DNA from: Acidobacteriota bacterium
Lineage (GTDB): Bacteria > Acidobacteriota > Terriglobia > Acidiferrales > UBA7541
Assembly: GCA_003223245.1 (NCBI GenBank)
Contig: QHYI01000102.1
Coordinates: 1 to 64,000 of the forward strand
Reading direction: 5' to 3'
DNA length: 64,000 nucleotides
The notes beneath the pieces are model-generated. The model was not told the origin of the DNA. It did not search any database and was given only the letters and a program-made list of their open reading frames with translations. The translations under genes were made by a program, and so were the position numbers. Below are positions 1,552 to 58,902 of this stretch, in pieces. Each line of letters starts with the position of its first letter. Positions within the stretch are counted from its first letter, which is position 1.

Positions 1552-1796
1552 GTAGAAGGATGCGTTTGCTCGACTCTTGGCAATTTGCGTTTGCGTGCGT
1601 TGTCAAAGGCCGAACTTTGAACTGGCTCTGTTGACATCTGCGATCGAGCCTCCGAAAAAGAACCGAAAGCAGATCGTTTCCTGTAAGTTGCGATTCGCTA
1701 GAAGCCTGCGTGCTGGGGATTCAGGTCTTCTGTGGTCTTCTGTTCTTGCCGCATCCGGGAGCTTTAGGCAGAATAGGCTTTTCTGGCGAGCCCTCC

Positions 1797-2432
1797 ATGA
1801 CTCCTTCGCAAGCAACGGCATGCAGGCTGTTCACCATCGGCCATTCCAACCTGGAATTCGACGAGTTTGTTTCCAGACTCGCGGAACATGGCGTTCGGGT
1901 GCTGTGCGATGTGCGCAGCCGGCCAGTCAGCTTTCGGTTTCCGCAGTTCAACCGCGATCCTTTGGAAGTAGGTTTACGAGATGCTGGCTTTGCGTATGAA
2001 TTTCTCGGCGAATCCCTGGGCGGAAGGCCGGCCGACGCGCGAGTTTATCAAGCGAACGGCCTTGTGGATTATTTTCTGCGGCGCAAAGCGCAAGACTTCG
2101 TCGCGGGATTGGTTCGAATTGTGGAGCTTTCGCGAAAACAAACGATTGCATTGATGTGCGCGGAAGAGGATCCCCTGCATTGCCACCGCTTCCTGATGAT
2201 TTGTCCAGAGTTGCTGGCGCGAGAGGTCACGCCGGTCCACATACGGCGCGGCGGGATTCTTGAATCGCAGCGCGAAGCGGAGGACCGTCTTTTAGCGCTG
2301 AATGATCTCACCGCATTTACCAGCGACTCGCTCTTCGCCAGCGAGCGCAGTTCCGCGCTGGAAGACGCGCTCCGCCGACAGGCGCAGGAATACGCTTTCC
2401 GCGGCTCCCCGGAACAAATGGAAGATTTTTAA
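1797..2432 (+). CDS. DUF488 family protein, first copy
   Basis: This 211-residue protein carries the DUF488 signatures: LFTIGHSNLEFDEFV near the N-terminus, the CDVRSRP motif, and a C-terminal CAEEDPLHCHR with the conserved Cys and His pair. DUF488 proteins are small cytosolic proteins whose biochemical activity is not established. The ATG at 1797 was chosen over upstream in-frame codons because the family begins just before TIGHS. The gene opens a compact operon: the next start is 5 bases after its stop, and three more genes follow with overlaps. The C-terminal ~50 residues are charged and lack a family motif. Confidence 0.85.
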   Translation: MTPSQATACRLFTIGHSNLEFDEFVSRLAEHGVRVLCDVRSRPVSFRFPQFNRDPLEVGLRDAGFAYEFLGESLGGRPADARVYQANGLVDYFLRRKAQDFVAGLVRIVELSRKQTIALMCAEEDPLHCHRFLMICPELLAREVTPVHIRRGGILESQREAEDRLLALNDLTAFTSDSLFASERSSALEDALRRQAQEYAFRGSPEQMEDF

Positions 2433-2437
2433 GCGAA

Positions 2438-2947
2438 ATGCAACGGCTGCTTTGCACCATCGGCTTCGCAGGCAAAACGGCGGAGGAGTTTTTTGCCCTG
2501 CTTCGAAGCGCCGGCGTCCAACAGTTGATTGACGTGCGGCAGAACCGCGGCGGACAGCTTTCAGGCTTCGCCAAGCACCCGGACTTGCCGTTTTTTTTGC
2601 GCGCGATCGAAAAGATCGAATATGCGCACGAACCGCTTCTTGCGCCTCCGCCCGAACTCCTCAAAGGCTATCGCAAAACAAAAGACTGGCCGGCGTATGA
2701 ACGGGCTTTTCTGGAAATAATGAAAGAGCGCGGCGTACCCGAAAAGGTGGATGCCAGTTCGTGGGCGCCCCACGTGGCGCTGCTATGTTCCGAAGCGGGT
2801 CCGGAAAAGTGCCACCGCCGCCTGGTGGCGGAGCTTCTGGCCGCACATTGGCGAGCCTGCGGCGACCGAGTGGAAGTTCGACACCTCGTTTTGGAGCGTA
2901 ATGGGAGCGCTGGACGCCGCCGCAAAAAACCGGCGCCTGCCCGATGA
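2438..2947 (+). CDS. DUF488 family protein, second and divergent copy
   Basis: A 169-residue protein with the same plan as its neighbour: LCTIGFAGKTAEEFF, then LIDVRQNRGGQ, and a C-terminal LLCSEAGPEKCHRRLVAELL. The middle is shorter than in the first copy, and identity between the two is limited to the motifs, so this is an old paralogue rather than a recent duplication. The C-terminal tail is basic (GRRRKKP). Its stop overlaps the start of the next gene (ATGA), which suggests translational coupling. Two DUF488 proteins plus a dual-OB protein in one operon suggest a multi-subunit complex, which is an inference. Confidence 0.85.
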   Translation: MQRLLCTIGFAGKTAEEFFALLRSAGVQQLIDVRQNRGGQLSGFAKHPDLPFFLRAIEKIEYAHEPLLAPPPELLKGYRKTKDWPAYERAFLEIMKERGVPEKVDASSWAPHVALLCSEAGPEKCHRRLVAELLAAHWRACGDRVEVRHLVLERNGSAGRRRKKPAPAR

Positions 2948-3657
2948 CGAAGCTTCTAATTACCGAGATCACCCGCATGGGTCCGGCTTTTTGCGTGATC
3001 GGTTTGCAGCGCGAAAATCAGAAGATGCAATCCGTTCGTCCGATTCCGTGTTCCGCTCACAGCTGGACATACTTCCCGCATCGTCGCGGCGACATCCTGG
3101 AGTGTGCTCTTACGCCGTTTCCCGGTACCTTTCCACACGTCGAAGATCGAGTTGTTACCAAAGGCTTCCGAAAGTGCGCCGTGGTTCGCGAAGCGGAAGT
3201 AGCCGGGTATCTTCGCAAAGCGGAATGCTCGGAATCCTTGCGCGGTTTGTTCGAATGTTCGATTTGCGAAAACAAACAGGGAAGCGGCGCCTATGCTCTC
3301 CCGGCCGAGGCCCGGCGTTCGATCAGCGGCTGCCAGACGCAAAATCTTCGACTGGAGCTTTGCGGAAATGAGCTGCGCGCCACCCTTGTACTTTCCTCCG
3401 GCGAGGTCTTGCGGGATCTTCCTGTCGTCGACCGCGATTGGCTCGATTTTGTGGACGCCGCCCTCGCTGCGAATCGAGGAGCAAACCGCGCCGCCCGGCT
3501 CGCGCGTTTCTTGAATTCTCAGTTTCATTGCAAGATCATGTCTTGTGCACATCATTTTGTCCGGATCGGTCTCACCAGGCCCTACCGGGAAGTTTGCTGG
3601 CTCATGCTGGACACGCTGTTTCCACTGCCAAAGGCCGATTGGCTCGAGGAGTTTTGA
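2944..3657 (+). CDS. Dual OB-fold domain (DuOB-like) protein
   Basis: A 237-residue protein beginning KLLITEITRM, then a Cys-Val strand, a SVRP segment and a GDILEC strand. It ends with RIGLTRPYREVCWLMLDTLFPLPK. This pattern matches what I know of the dual-OB domain family found beside DUF488 genes; OB folds usually bind nucleic acids. Several Cys residues (in CSICENK and CGNEL) do not form an obvious zinc site. The start overlaps the DUF488 stop by 4 bases, and the stop overlaps the next ATG by 1 base (TGATG). Family assignment is by memory of the motif order only. Confidence 0.65.
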   Translation: MTKLLITEITRMGPAFCVIGLQRENQKMQSVRPIPCSAHSWTYFPHRRGDILECALTPFPGTFPHVEDRVVTKGFRKCAVVREAEVAGYLRKAECSESLRGLFECSICENKQGSGAYALPAEARRSISGCQTQNLRLELCGNELRATLVLSSGEVLRDLPVVDRDWLDFVDAALAANRGANRAARLARFLNSQFHCKIMSCAHHFVRIGLTRPYREVCWLMLDTLFPLPKADWLEEF

Positions 3658-4958
3658 TGGCCCTGCGCCAGACCTTTTCAGCGAAGGAAAAAGATTCCTT
3701 TCGCCGCATTATTGAAACTTGTTTCCGTCAAGAGGTTGGTCTTTCCGCGCCACTGCCCGATGAAATGGCGGATTTGATTCAAATGGGAATTCTGGACTCC
3801 ATGGCGTGGGTCAGCTTCTTGCGTGCCGTGGAAACGGCAAGCGGCATTTCCGATCTTGCGTCCGGCCTCAATGAGCGCCCGGCAAGCTTAGCCTCAGTGT
3901 TGGCTGCCTTGCGGGAGTCAAGCAAAGGCCCTTTGGCTGCCAATGATCCTCAAAAGGGATTGAATAAATATCTCGGCACAGTCCCGGTGTTTCTAGCGGC
4001 CTCGTCATCGGCGCGAGGTTCGCGTGTGGTGCCATCGGAGGAAGTGGACCGGGCGTTTGGGATGCCTGTCGGGAAGCTTCGCAAACGCGCAGGAATTGAG
4101 TCGCTTGCTTACGCTTCTGAGGAAGAAAACGAATTAACCCTGGGCACGAAGGCGGCGGACGATGCGCTTCGCACTGCCGTGTGTGGACCACAGGAACTGG
4201 ACTGGGTCATTGCCACCAGCGAAACGCATCACGACTATCCGGCGCTTGCCGCGCAACTGCACTCGCGGCTGCTGGCCCGCGAGAACTGCGGCGCGTTGGA
4301 CGTCGGAGGAGGCTGCCTCGGGTTGCTCAACGCGCTGGCGGTGGCACAATCGTTAATTGCTTCGGGCGGGGCTCGAACGGTTGCGGTAGTTACCGCGGAT
4401 GTGCACAGCCGAACTCTGACGCCAGAGCGGGTTGCGGGCGAATTCGGCGGTTTGTTCGGCGACGGCGCGAGCGCCTTCTTGTTACGCCGCGAAGAAAATG
4501 CCCTCGGGGGCTTTGGCTACCAGCTCGGCGAGTTTCTGTTTGGGTGCGCTGGGCAATACGCTGCGGCCATCCGCGTCGCCGGGAAAAAAGGCGGCGGCCT
4601 CGAGGTGCAGTTCGAGGGCGAGGCGCTTTCCCGCGCGGCGATTACGCGCATGGAGAAGGTCATTGCGGCCGTAGAAGCGCGCAGCGGCATTGCCCGTCAG
4701 GCGGTGGGAGGATTCGCGACACACCAACCGAATCCGCGCCTTCTGACTCTTCTGGCGAAGCAGTGCGGCGTTTCGCCGGAGACTTTTCCTCCCATTTGCA
4801 GCACGGCTGGAAATCTTGGCTCTTCGATGTGCGGAGCCGCTCTTCATGCGGCTTTGCAAAACGCGGCAAATGTGGAAGCGCGGCAGCGCAAACCGATTTT
4901 TCTGGTATCGCTTGGCCCGGGTTTGCTGTTTGGCGGGACGTGGCTTACACCTGGTTGA
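3657..4958 (+). CDS. Acyl-carrier-like domain fused to KAS III-type ketosynthase
   Basis: This 433-residue protein has two parts. Residues 1-90 form a helical carrier-like domain with GILDSMAWVSFL, whose Ser48 in the DS(M/L) motif is the likely 4'-phosphopantetheine site. Residues ~100-433 are a FabH/KAS III-like thiolase fold with the triad intact: Cys220 (DVGGGCLG), His356 (THQPNPR) and Asn386 (AGNLGSS). Such enzymes condense or transfer acyl groups from CoA or ACP. The ATG at 3657 overlaps the preceding TGA. A longer in-frame extension upstream (to 3438) overlaps the dual-OB gene and is not credible. A fatty-acid-like enzyme at the end of a DUF488 operon is unusual, and the substrate is unknown. 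Confidence 0.75.
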   Translation: MALRQTFSAKEKDSFRRIIETCFRQEVGLSAPLPDEMADLIQMGILDSMAWVSFLRAVETASGISDLASGLNERPASLASVLAALRESSKGPLAANDPQKGLNKYLGTVPVFLAASSSARGSRVVPSEEVDRAFGMPVGKLRKRAGIESLAYASEEENELTLGTKAADDALRTAVCGPQELDWVIATSETHHDYPALAAQLHSRLLARENCGALDVGGGCLGLLNALAVAQSLIASGGARTVAVVTADVHSRTLTPERVAGEFGGLFGDGASAFLLRREENALGGFGYQLGEFLFGCAGQYAAAIRVAGKKGGGLEVQFEGEALSRAAITRMEKVIAAVEARSGIARQAVGGFATHQPNPRLLTLLAKQCGVSPETFPPICSTAGNLGSSMCGAALHAALQNAANVEARQRKPIFLVSLGPGLLFGGTWLTPG

Positions 4959-5391
4959 GCCGCGCGCCGATTTGTTCGGAAGACATTGTTTCCTCAGAGT
5001 CGGCAGTTACTTCTGGCGGAGGGAAGAACCGATCGGGAAGGTCGGACACTACGAAGAAACTGCTTACGGTCCGAGCCTCGTCCGCGTCGTGAAGGTAATG
5101 TCCACGGCAGGAACGACGCGGGCTTGTAGCGGCGGCCATCCGGCATCGGTCATCGCGTTGCGGCAAAGCGAGGTCGTCGCGCCGGTGAATTGGGCGGTGG
5201 TCGCCCAGCCGAAGATTTTTCCGCGCAAGCTGCGCTACTAGAAACCGGTAAAGGAACGGTTCTCTTGAGACAACATTCGTTCTGATTTGGCATGCACACG
5301 CCGATTGTCTGTTCCATTTCGGCATTTCGACTCAGCCTTCCCTGCAGCCTCTCGCGTTGACTTCCCTCGTTCTCCCGCGAATAATCCCTGC
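4959..5391. other. 433-base stretch without a confident gene
   Basis: Short frames cross the region on both strands. One plus-strand frame runs to a TAG near 5241 and a minus-strand one covers about 5070-5240, but neither has a recognisable domain, a ribosome binding site or a proper start. Some codon-like periodicity around 5090-5240 could mean a decayed gene. No repeat or terminator was identified. Confidence 0.3.
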
Positions 5392-5769
5392 ATGGCTCGC
5401 CCGGATGCCGTCCGCCGCGTCAAAAGCTATTCCGCTGCTGACGGCTTCGTGTATCAGTATTACTTCTTTGAGGGCAGTCGCGGCCAACGCGGAGGATCCC
5501 CTGGGGGCGAGTTCACGTATGTCGTTTCGGTTGACCGCCAAACCGCCTTTCCGTTCAAAATCTTTGTGTATCAGTCCGCGCTCGATCTCTGGGCGGAACA
5601 AAACGGCCGCTCGCTCTCCAGCTCCGAGGAATACGCCGTGGCCAAAATGCGCCTTTTCCACGCTTTTGATGAAGGCGCCGTCCAGGCCAGCCCCAAGGGG
5701 GAGCCGCCCCGCGAAGTCGTCGTCAACGAAGCCAATCTAGAAGACCTGCTGGGCCAGTTGGGGATTTGA
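5392..5769 (+). CDS. Conserved hypothetical protein, 125 aa
   Basis: A small soluble protein with no signal peptide. It starts MARPDAVRRVKSYSAADGFVY and contains an aromatic strand (YQYYFFEGSR), a central FTYVVSVDRQTAFPFKIFVY and an acidic C-terminus. I do not recognise a domain. The ATG at 5392 was preferred because the 35 codons upstream in the same frame look non-coding. It lies alone between a gap and the sigma factor gene. The codon usage fits its neighbours, so a real gene is likely even though no function can be given. Confidence 0.6.
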   Translation: MARPDAVRRVKSYSAADGFVYQYYFFEGSRGQRGGSPGGEFTYVVSVDRQTAFPFKIFVYQSALDLWAEQNGRSLSSSEEYAVAKMRLFHAFDEGAVQASPKGEPPREVVVNEANLEDLLGQLGI

Positions 5770-5910
5770 CCGTCTGAAGCCTGCCTGAAGCGGTACGATC
5801 TATCAGCGTGAACCAAAGTCGCCGCCGCGGCGTCTGGTAGTTTGTACGGAGACGTGTACCGGAGCGTGCTTGCCCGGGCGGCTGCGTGTGTGAGTGTTAA
5901 GAAGGGATCT

Positions 5911-6504
5911 ATGCAGGAGCTGGTTCTGAGCCAACCAGTCAGCACCGTGAGGAGCGAGTTGGTGCGCGAGGCAGCTCGGGCCGATGCCCAACGGGAGTTC
6001 GAAGAGCGCCTCGCCGAATGCGGCCCGCTGGCGTACCGTGTCGCGCGCAGCGTCCTGCGCAACACCGCCGATGCCGAAGACGTGGCCCAGGAAGCTTTGC
6101 TTAGGGCATACAAAGGCTTCGAGCGTCTCCGCGACCGGACCCATTTTCGCGGTTGGCTCGTTCGAATTTCGTTTCGGCTTGCGCTTGACAAGCTGCGCTC
6201 GGGGAAGCGCCGCGAACAGCGCGACACGCTGTGGTCCCAACCGGCGCATCTTCCGCCGCCGCTGACGGCCGAAGATGTCGTGGCTTCGAACCAGTTTCAA
6301 AATCACCTGGAGCGCGCGCTCGACGGGTTGCCGGAGAAGTTCCGCCTGGTGCTTTTGCTCTCTGCCATGGAAGGCTACACGGTCGAGGAAATTGCCGCCA
6401 TGATCGGCGTGCCGCTCGGCACGGTGAAGTCGCGGATTTTCTTGGCACGAAAGAAGTTGGCGGAGAAGTTGCGATGCCATGCAAACACTATAAAGAGGCG
6501 CTAA
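5911..6504 (+). CDS. ECF-type RNA polymerase sigma factor
   Basis: A 197-residue sigma-70 family protein. Region 2 (about residues 35-95) contains LAYRVARSVLRNTADAEDVAQEALLRAY and FRGWLVRISFRLALD. Region 4 (about 130-185) contains LPEKFRLVLLLSAMEGYTVEEIAAMIGV and GTVKSRIFLARKKL, the helix-turn-helix that reads the -35 element. The ATG at 5911 is preceded by GAAGGGA. The 3' end overlaps the anti-sigma gene by 31 bases, so the two are co-translated. The factor is probably held inactive by that membrane protein until an envelope signal arrives. Confidence 0.88.
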   Translation: MQELVLSQPVSTVRSELVREAARADAQREFEERLAECGPLAYRVARSVLRNTADAEDVAQEALLRAYKGFERLRDRTHFRGWLVRISFRLALDKLRSGKRREQRDTLWSQPAHLPPPLTAEDVVASNQFQNHLERALDGLPEKFRLVLLLSAMEGYTVEEIAAMIGVPLGTVKSRIFLARKKLAEKLRCHANTIKRR

Positions 6505-7163
6505 TCGAGGCGGCCGCAAGCGGAGCGGCGCCGTCAGGAGAACTCCGCTTGCATTTCGGCGAATGCGCTTCCTGCCGCGAGGCCTTCGCACAAGAGCAAT
6601 TCTTGTTCTCCGCCATCGATTCCGATCGGCACGCCGCGGCCAACGCCGAAGTTCCAGCTTCGCTCGTTCCTCGCGTTCGTGCGCGCCTAGAGGAAACTAT
6701 TGCTCCGCGGCTCGGTTGGATGCAGCCACTCGTTCTTGCTTCTGCCTGCGTGGCTCTGGCGTTTGCAGTTTTTCTAATGGCGCGGCCTCATCACGCCGCG
6801 CCGGAAGAGGTAGCCAAACAAGGCCCGGTCATGGTCCCGGCGCCAACAGCGCCGAAAACAAACGCAAATCCGGAGAAAATTTCCCCCTCAGGTAGTCAGA
6901 TCGGTGCCCTTCGGGTCAATCATTTTCAGGTGGCGTCTAGCAATCGAGAAGTCCTCGTTCCACCGGATGAGCGCGAAGGACTAGCGCACCTTGTGGCCAC
7001 GCTGAACGAACGCAGAGATTTTGCTGTTGCTTTGCGTGCGCAACGTCCGGAAAAGAAAGACGGGCTCGTAACTGTAGATCCATTGCAGATTTCCGACATC
7101 GAGATCAAGCCACTCGAAGGCACTGAAACCGAAACTTCGGATGGTGCGGGCGAGACACATTAG
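6474..7163 (+). CDS. Membrane anti-sigma factor with zinc-finger motif
   Basis: A 229-residue protein with the ZAS-type motif HFGECASCREAF (HxxxCxxC) at about residues 27-38, a single transmembrane helix near residues 82-102 (LVLASACVALAFAVFLMA) and a periplasmic tail of about 125 residues with a Pro/Ala-rich linker. It begins inside the sigma gene, which identifies its partner. The cytosolic zinc finger should bind the sigma factor and the outer tail should sense the signal. The tail has no recognised domain. Confidence 0.8.
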   Translation: MPCKHYKEALIEAAASGAAPSGELRLHFGECASCREAFAQEQFLFSAIDSDRHAAANAEVPASLVPRVRARLEETIAPRLGWMQPLVLASACVALAFAVFLMARPHHAAPEEVAKQGPVMVPAPTAPKTNANPEKISPSGSQIGALRVNHFQVASSNREVLVPPDEREGLAHLVATLNERRDFAVALRAQRPEKKDGLVTVDPLQISDIEIKPLEGTETETSDGAGETH

Positions 7164-7201
7164 CGAATGGTTGAGCAAAAACGAATCACCGCGGAGGAAA
7201 A

Positions 7202-7795
7202 ATGAAACTCAGTCCGATTCATGTAGCAACACTTCTCTTGCTCGGCATGCTCTCGGCGGTTTGCCGTTCACAGGACAAACCAAAGGCGGAGGATAGGCCG
7301 AAGGCGGAAGCTCAGACCACGCCGGTGAGAGTCACGATTGTGTTCACCGAATACGACGGGGAAAAGAAAATCAAGAGCCTTCCCTACACGATTTATATCA
7401 ATGCTCACGACGCGGCCGATTCGAGAAGCTCCATGACTAAGCTCCGCGTAGGTAGCCGCGTGCCAGTGTACACGGGTGGAAATTCAAACATGACCTATTT
7501 GGACGTGGGGACAAGCATTGACGCGCATGCGACACGCACGGTGGAAGGCCATTTTGTCTTAGCTCTAACCTTGGACCGGTCGTCGGCTGAGGGCTATACC
7601 GTCGTCCCTGTGCAAAGGCCGCCAGAGCAAACAGATCCACACGCGGGATCCTTTCAGGAACCAATCATGCGCAGTTTCCGGTCAGAACTCGACCTCAAGC
7701 TGCGTGATGGCCAGACGCTCGAGACCACGATGGCAACCGACCCCATAAGCAGCAAAGTGATTAAAGTGGAAGTCGGCTTGTCGGTCGTTAAATAG
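7202..7795 (+). CDS. Secreted hypothetical protein in the sigma/anti-sigma cluster
   Basis: A 197-residue protein with a clear signal peptide (MKLSPIHVATLLLLGMLSAVCRSQ). After a Lys/Glu-rich linker there is a beta-rich region with KLRVGSRVPVYTG and MTYLDVGTSIDA. This pair recalls the core strands of secretin-like proteins, but the protein is far too short to be a secretin. It has a GAGG-type ribosome site (GCGGAGGAAAA) before ATG 7202. It lies 38 bases after the anti-sigma gene and is probably in the same operon, perhaps as an envelope target. Function unknown. Confidence 0.65.
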   Translation: MKLSPIHVATLLLLGMLSAVCRSQDKPKAEDRPKAEAQTTPVRVTIVFTEYDGEKKIKSLPYTIYINAHDAADSRSSMTKLRVGSRVPVYTGGNSNMTYLDVGTSIDAHATRTVEGHFVLALTLDRSSAEGYTVVPVQRPPEQTDPHAGSFQEPIMRSFRSELDLKLRDGQTLETTMATDPISSKVIKVEVGLSVVK

Positions 7796-58554: not shown

Positions 58555-58902
58555 ATGGTACGCATCAAACGAGTCTATGAAGAAGCCAGCAAAGAAGACG
58601 GCTACCGTGTGCTGGTGGATCGCCTCTGGCCACGCGGCATGAAAAGAGAGCAAGCGAAAATCGACGTGTGGATGAAGGACGTGGCTCCGAGCGACGCTCT
58701 GCGCAAAACTTTCCACCACGATGTGATGAAATGGCCCGATTTCGAGAAGAAGTATCGGGCCGAGTTGAAGAAGAAAGAAGAGTCGCTTGCACAATTGAAG
58801 AAATTGGAGAAGGAGCATGGGACCGTGACGCTCTTGTTTGGCGCCCGTGATCCGGAACACAACCAGGCCGTCCTCATTGCCGAAGCGCTGAACAAGAAAT
58901 GA
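58555..58902 (+). CDS. YeaO-type DUF488 protein
   Basis: A 115-residue protein: VRIKRVYEEASKEDGYRVLVDRLWPRGMKREQAKIDVWMKDVAPSDALRKTF, then FEKKYRAEL and VTLLFGARDPEHNQAVLIAEAL. This is the shorter YeaO class of DUF488, distinct from the two proteins at 1797-2947. Function unknown. Its stop overlaps the GrpB frame by 4 bases. Confidence 0.9.
   Translation: MVRIKRVYEEASKEDGYRVLVDRLWPRGMKREQAKIDVWMKDVAPSDALRKTFHHDVMKWPDFEKKYRAELKKKEESLAQLKKLEKEHGTVTLLFGARDPEHNQAVLIAEALNKK

What the first reader, a model, noticed from the sequence alone, without database searches (positions are those of the whole stretch)
1797..4958. Four-gene coupled operon of two DUF488 proteins, a dual-OB protein and a carrier-ketosynthase fusion
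The four genes are joined by a 5-base gap and by 4-base and 1-base overlaps, so they are almost certainly co-translated. Two divergent DUF488 copies and a probable nucleic-acid-binding OB protein sit with an enzyme that has an intact Cys-His-Asn triad and a phosphopantetheine-type Ser. I know of no described pathway combining these. One hypothesis is acyl modification of a nucleic acid or nucleotide, or an acyl-based immune signal.
Basis: partly seen in the sequence, partly recalled or inferred. Interest (0 to 1): 0.68.

Follow-up and report, generated by a model that had tools for sequence, protein, structure and literature searches.

The report
PDC-M45-like operon fused to ketosynthase
Four tightly packed soil-Acidobacteria genes join a module resembling a catalogued candidate phage-defence system (two DUF488 enzymes and a probable nucleic-acid-binding dual-OB protein) to a carrier-plus-ketosynthase enzyme; close relatives have often swapped out or lost the defence-like half while keeping the ketosynthase.

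Summary
Window 1797-4958 holds DUF488 (A), DUF488 (B), a dual-OB protein (C) and a carrier-KASIII fusion (D), with a 5-base gap and 4- and 1-base overlaps. The order and near-identical junctions recur in 9 congeners and in a second family of the same class (C about 37% identical); C was not found outside these two families. A and B are strong matches to PADLOC's candidate defence proteins PDC-M45B and PDC-M45C. PDC-M45A turns out to be the DuOB domain (PF22557), and C is a remote DuOB relative below every family cut-off, with two OB folds in its model. Three of the four genes are therefore a divergent relative of a catalogued candidate defence module. The new part is the carrier-ketosynthase. 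It is not a fixed partner: 17 of 31 congeners with the ketosynthase lack A, B, C and the carrier domain. Two sister species differ by a clean replacement of that whole block, with a breakpoint inside the ketosynthase reading frame. Plain PDC-M45 loci without a ketosynthase occur in the same genus. Most likely this is a swappable nucleic-acid-directed conflict cassette coupled to a resident KASIII enzyme. Its chemistry and any phage resistance are inferred, not shown.

The parts
1746..1775 (+). likely promoter of the operon: TTGCCG, 17-base spacer, CAGAAT
   Evidence: The same CTTGCCG...GGCAAAATA/GGCAGAATA block lies upstream of A in nearly all cassette-bearing congeners (position). The consensus scan did not flag it, so it rests on conservation.
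1797..2432 (+). gene A, DUF488 protein (211 aa), PDC-M45B-like; conserved CAEEDPLHCHR (Cys121, His130, Arg131)
   Evidence: PF04343 75.4 bits; PDC-M45B E 5.4e-54; motif present in the A genes checked
2438..2947 (+). gene B, second DUF488 protein (169 aa), PDC-M45C-like; conserved CSEAGPEKCHR
   Evidence: PF04343 65.7 bits, PF22751 'active DUF488-N3 subclade' 45.9 bits over its cut-off of 27; PDC-M45C E 1.3e-47
2944..3657 (+). gene C, divergent dual-OB (DuOB-like) protein, 237 aa
   Evidence: AF2 model with two OB folds; family profile matches an accepted DuOB protein at 19.0 bits against at most 4.1 bits in 2000 shuffled sequences; below the PF22557 cut-off
3657..4958 (+). gene D, carrier-KASIII fusion (433 aa)
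3657..3926 (+). carrier domain of D; Ser48 codon at 3798-3800
   Evidence: Ser invariant in the aligned intact copies; family profile matches a peptidyl carrier protein of known structure at E 1.8e-5; PF00550 below cut-off
3984..4955 (+). KASIII-like ketosynthase domain of D; Cys220 4314-4316, His356 4722-4724, Asn386 4812-4814
   Evidence: ACP_syn_III and ACP_syn_III_C over cut-off; triad kept in all 43 homologues where all three positions could be read

Best explanation
This is a divergent relative of the candidate defence module PDC-M45 (DUF488 + DUF488 + DuOB) that is transcribed, and through its carrier domain physically joined, with a resident KASIII-like ketosynthase. SHOWN by sequence: the operon, the domains, conserved catalytic residues, deep conservation of the order, and loss or exchange of the A-B-C-carrier block as a unit with the ketosynthase kept. 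INFERRED: C binds nucleic acid through its OB folds and brings the two DUF488 enzymes (each with a conserved Cys...Cys-His-Arg loop; weakly PTP/Rossmann-like model) to a foreign nucleic acid or nucleotide; the carrier, loaded through a phosphopantetheine arm on Ser48, presents an acyl or aminoacyl group to the ketosynthase active site, which makes or transfers an acyl product used by, or released by, the response. The cassette is under gain/loss selection like other conflict systems, while the ketosynthase also has a use of its own.
For: A and B match PDC-M45B and PDC-M45C. The PADLOC PDC-M45A models hit proteins that are PF22557 DuOB. C is linked to DuOB by profile and fold. Canonical DuOB-DUF488-DUF488 loci on plasmids lie beside Cas1/Csm6/Csx16/type III-B CRISPR genes, beside a HORMA-domain gene and TcmP, and beside an SNF2-related gene. 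The four-gene order is conserved in two families with short gaps or overlaps. Presence of the block flickers on the ketosynthase tree (10 changes) and is a clean allele replacement between G027 and G013 with flanks 92-93% identical. Triad kept in 43 of 43 readable homologues; carrier Ser kept in every intact fusion. A and B Cys/His/Arg motifs kept.
Against: No phage-resistance data for PDC-M45 could be found in the papers held. The window locus is not in an obvious defence island; its neighbours are PEGA, bPH_2 and an ECF sigma factor. C and D were not found outside two or three families of one class. The ketosynthase persists without the cassette, and G011 keeps A and B with a truncated C and no ketosynthase, so the two halves are separable.
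Confidence: 0.4

Rival explanations
1. The ketosynthase is an autonomous metabolic enzyme (for example making a special fatty acyl or beta-keto product with a carrier supplied in trans), and the DUF488/DuOB cassette merely shares its promoter and position.
For: 17 of 31 congeners with the ketosynthase keep it alone, with the triad residues in place. In G030, B and the carrier serine are deleted while the ketosynthase triad is intact. KS-only genes sit in ordinary chromosomal context such as BaxI_1, HD_4 and TonB-receptor-like genes.
Against: In every intact cassette the carrier domain is fused to the ketosynthase and gained or lost with A-B-C (one exception, G061, has the fusion without A-B-C). 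The order is kept across deep divergence, and two lineages keep one DUF488 directly before the ketosynthase (G034/G035, G002), which a bystander would not predict.
Confidence: 0.27
2. The operon is a nucleic-acid or nucleotide modification pathway rather than defence: DUF488 enzymes activate or modify a base, the OB protein holds the RNA or DNA, and the carrier-ketosynthase supplies the acyl group.
For: Dual OB fold, conserved DUF488 Cys-His-Arg motif, carrier profile nearest to peptidyl, D-alanyl and aminoacyl carriers.
Against: Patchy presence between sister species is unusual for a housekeeping modification; no known modification enzyme is present; no direct evidence of substrate.
Confidence: 0.18
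3. The carrier-ketosynthase makes a diffusible acyl signal that activates the DUF488 proteins on infection (signal-effector design).
For: Only the general logic of a synthase next to putative effectors; no sequence evidence beyond domain content.
Against: No sensor domain for an acyl signal was recognised; the ketosynthase persists without DUF488 genes; the presumed sensor (OB protein) is not fused to the synthase.
Confidence: 0.1

Closest known systems
PADLOC candidate defence system PDC-M45 (A = DuOB, B and C = DUF488)
   Same: Two DUF488 proteins matching the B and C models, adjacent to a dual-OB protein, in one operon
   Different: C is below the PDC-M45A and PF22557 cut-offs; the order is DUF488-DUF488-OB instead of OB-DUF488-DUF488 as on plasmids (though L095 of Acidobacteriota has the window's order); a fourth carrier-ketosynthase gene is added
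DuOB domain (PF22557)
   Same: Two OB folds; N-terminal OB alignable with DuOB of L095 and L096
   Different: Best of the 11 C proteins first scanned reaches only E 0.009
KASIII / FabH-type 3-oxoacyl-ACP synthases
   Same: Fold family, Cys-His-Asn triad
   Different: 117.5 bits against a cut-off of 292.1 for FabH; fused to a carrier; the genome has two other KASIII-like genes elsewhere, only 25-26% identical to D
Stand-alone carrier proteins (peptidyl, D-alanyl, aminoacyl)
   Same: D-S-M phosphopantetheine motif; PDB profile match E 1.8e-5
   Different: N-terminally fused to a KASIII enzyme; PF00550 below cut-off

Membership tests
PDC-M45 (PADLOC) | DUF488 protein matching PDC-M45B | tested here: met
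   A: E 5.4e-54, 180.9 bits
PDC-M45 (PADLOC) | DUF488 protein matching PDC-M45C | tested here: met
   B: E 1.3e-47, 159.3 bits
PDC-M45 (PADLOC) | protein matching a PDC-M45A (DuOB) model | tested here: not met
   C and its relative in L033 have no PADLOC hit; hence called PDC-M45-like, not a member
PDC-M45 (PADLOC) | protection against phage | not testable with these tools
   PDC systems are candidates; no assay data found
DuOB (PF22557) | score over the Pfam cut-off | tested here: not met
   0 hits for the window protein, best family member E 0.0092
DuOB (PF22557) | two OB folds and detectable homology to accepted members | tested here: met
   AF2 model and fold hits; profile hit to L095 DuOB 19.0 bits, best of 2000 shuffles 4.1
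DUF488 (PF04343) | score over the Pfam cut-off | tested here: met
   75.4 and 65.7 bits against 22.2
DUF488-N3a (PF22751, 'active' subclade) | score over the Pfam cut-off | tested here: met
   B 45.9 bits against 27; A is below at 21.4
KASIII | ACP_syn_III and ACP_syn_III_C domains with Cys-His-Asn triad | tested here: met
FabH (NCBIfam TIGR00747) | score over curated cut-off | tested here: not met
   117.5 bits against 292.1
Carrier protein (PF00550) | score over the Pfam cut-off | tested here: not met
   window 12.6 bits, best relative 18.4, cut-off 20.8
Carrier protein (PF00550) | invariant phosphopantetheine Ser after Asp | tested here: met
   DS motif in all intact fusions; deleted only in the decayed G030 copy
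Carrier protein (PF00550) | phosphopantetheinylation | not testable with these tools
   needs PPTase assay and mass spectrometry

The most novel reading that the evidence does not exclude
An immune system that couples nucleic-acid recognition by a DuOB-like sensor and DUF488 enzymes to carrier-bound acyl (or aminoacyl) Claisen chemistry, so that infection is met by making or attaching an acyl product; no described defence system that I know of uses a ketosynthase with a carrier.
Probability: 0.18. Interest if true: 0.85.

Novelty: new variant of a known kind. Interest (0 to 1): 0.5.

Why it matters
DUF488 is widespread and its function is unknown to me. The finding ties two of its members and a dual-OB protein to fatty-acid-type chemistry, giving a concrete hypothesis about what the group acts with. 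The natural pair of near-identical loci with and without the cassette (G027 and G013) and the ketosynthase-only relatives are ready-made controls for experiments.

Tried and rejected
Fixed four-part system: rejected, ketosynthase alone in 17 congeners. Cassette simply elsewhere in the KS-only genomes: C was not found in those sampled, and most have no A-like gene at all; G003 has a canonical PDC-M45 instead, as does G004, which has no ketosynthase of this kind. Many independent deletions only: disfavoured, because short-allele leaders are homologous among KS-only species that surround the cassette-bearing G027 on the KS tree. C related to a solved structure by sequence: none. DUF488 related to a solved structure by sequence: none. 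Fold search for A gives only middling PTP-like and methyltransferase matches (Foldseek E 2.8e-4 for DUF442; VIA Z 7-8), so no mechanism is taken from it. Profile-profile comparison of C with five DuOB proteins was weak (3.8% probability); the bridge through L095 was needed. Spread to viruses: none for C in viral contigs; a DuOB alignment could not be used there. Literature: no paper held on PDC-M45 or DuOB was found, and DUF488 appears only in passing.

Full report
WHAT IS THERE. A (1797-2432) and B (2438-2947) are DUF488 proteins over the Pfam cut-off. C (2944-3657) has no family, PDB or PADLOC match on its own. D (3657-4958) is a KASIII-type ketosynthase (ACP_syn_III and ACP_syn_III_C) with an N-terminal carrier-like domain. 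A conserved promoter-like block, TTGCCG-17-CAGAAT at 1746-1774, precedes A and recurs upstream of A in nearly all cassette-bearing congeners.

C IS A DIVERGENT DUAL-OB PROTEIN. An AlphaFold2 model from 11 relatives (pLDDT 81.6) has two OB folds. Foldseek and VIA matches are almost all OB proteins: RecO, telomere end-binding proteins, RPA, and the dual-OB HIN-200 DNA sensors (best E about 1e-3; Z 5.6-6.8), so the fold class is supported but no particular relative is. By sequence, the C profile hits the DuOB protein of another Acidobacteriota genome (L095, itself 61.7 bits against PF22557) at 19.0 bits, where the best of 2000 shuffled sequences reached 4.1. It stays below the DuOB cut-off.

THREE OF FOUR GENES RESEMBLE A CATALOGUED CANDIDATE DEFENCE SYSTEM. 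A matches PADLOC PDC-M45B (E 5.4e-54) and B matches PDC-M45C (E 1.3e-47). The PDC-M45A models and DuOB hit the same proteins, so PDC-M45 is DuOB + DUF488 + DUF488. Plasmid examples run DuOB-DUF488-DUF488 and lie beside type III-B CRISPR genes with Csm6, Csx16 and Cas1 (Allochromatium), beside a HORMA-domain gene and TcmP (Agrobacterium), and beside an SNF2-related gene (Rhodovastum). L095 has the window's order DUF488-DUF488-DuOB, without a ketosynthase. I do not file the window as a PDC-M45 member, because C fails the PDC-M45A models.

THE CARRIER-KETOSYNTHASE. The carrier serine (Ser48, LDSM) is kept in every intact fusion across both families; only the decayed copy of G030 has lost it. A family profile matches a peptidyl carrier protein of known structure at E 1.8e-5, followed by D-alanyl and aminoacyl carriers. 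The Cys-His-Asn triad is kept in all 43 homologues where it could be read; one of these, G025, has in-frame stops and is probably a pseudogene. It is KASIII but not FabH.

CONSERVATION. In a class sample of 299 genomes, C occurs in 21, all in families f1 and f6. Wherever the contig allows, and apart from the truncated copy in G011, the order is A-B-C-carrier/KS, in the genus with A-B gaps of 3-6 bases (7 in G045 of f6) and usually 4-base and 1-base overlaps. The G045 (f6) proteins are 37% (C) and 36% (D) identical to the window's, so the arrangement is old. In phylum samples of 396 genomes, C was otherwise absent, apart from one marginal partial match, and no other genome had more than a distant ketosynthase relative.

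SEPARABILITY. Of 35 congeners, 31 have the orthologous ketosynthase. Nine have the full cassette on one contig, one is split by a contig end and one (G030) is decayed. Seventeen have the ketosynthase alone, without the carrier domain. Two keep only A before it, one keeps only B. G011 has A, B and a truncated C but no ketosynthase. G061, another genus of the family, has the fusion without A-B-C. On the ketosynthase tree the cassette changes state 10 times. The clearest case is G027 (cassette) against G013 (none): flanks are 92-93% identical, and 2459 bases (leader, A, B, C, carrier) are replaced by 424 unrelated bases, with the right breakpoint inside the ketosynthase frame. Leaders of the short form are homologous among KS-only species that surround G027 on the tree, so exchange by recombination, not only deletion, is likely (inference). 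Within the same genus G003 and G004 carry a canonical DuOB-DUF488 locus elsewhere with no ketosynthase in it (the second DUF488 of G004 is).

HOW IT MOST LIKELY WORKS. Inferred: C binds nucleic acid, the two DUF488 enzymes act on it or on nucleotides through their conserved Cys...Cys-His-Arg loop, and the carrier and ketosynthase make or transfer an acyl or aminoacyl group coupled to this. Gain and loss of the cassette between sister species is the pattern expected of a conflict system. Nothing here shows phage resistance, acyl transfer or nucleic-acid binding. The main rival is an independent metabolic ketosynthase that shares a locus with the cassette; single DUF488 genes kept before the ketosynthase in two lineages argue against pure chance, but weakly.

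LIMITS. Most genomes appear to be metagenome-assembled (record titles), so missing genes at contig ends were not counted as losses where this could be seen; some KS-only loci lie on short contigs (for example L123, L071, L116), and there absence of the cassette rests on the missing carrier domain and on the genome-wide search for C. The trees concern one class. Defence is by family resemblance. The DUF488 fold matches are too weak to assign an activity.

Noticed in passing
L020 (oriented 5236-7694) and L117 (oriented 4995-5418): Two sister species differ by replacement of the whole A-B-C-carrier block by 424 unrelated bases, with a breakpoint inside the ketosynthase gene: a two-allele locus that looks exchanged by recombination.
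   Followed up: yes
L126 7730-9522 and L127 7276-8987: Canonical PDC-M45 loci (DuOB-DUF488-DUF488) without ketosynthase in two congeners (G003, G004), at other chromosomal places.
   Followed up: partly
window 58555-58902: A third, stand-alone DUF488 protein (115 aa), the strongest PF04343 match in the genome (2.4e-33), just after an inositol-monophosphatase-like gene.
   Followed up: no
L018 (G030): Decaying copy: most of B and the carrier serine segment are deleted while the ketosynthase triad is intact.
   Followed up: partly
L097 634-6669: A DUF488-DuOB pair beside a large protein with weak HSDR_N and AAA matches and an RRM at its end, and a DUF2779 protein: possible further conflict locus.
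   Followed up: no
L093 5943-7882: A DuOB gene directly after a Schlafen AlbA_2 / HATPase_c_4 protein.
   Followed up: no
plasmid CP052514 (Klebsiella pneumoniae, 4167 bases), 2373-2981: A DuOB-like protein on a very small plasmid record.
   Followed up: no
window 5287-5769: A conserved ORF of unknown family downstream of the operon, kept at this place with the ECF sigma factor (5842-6504) in several congeners.
   Followed up: no
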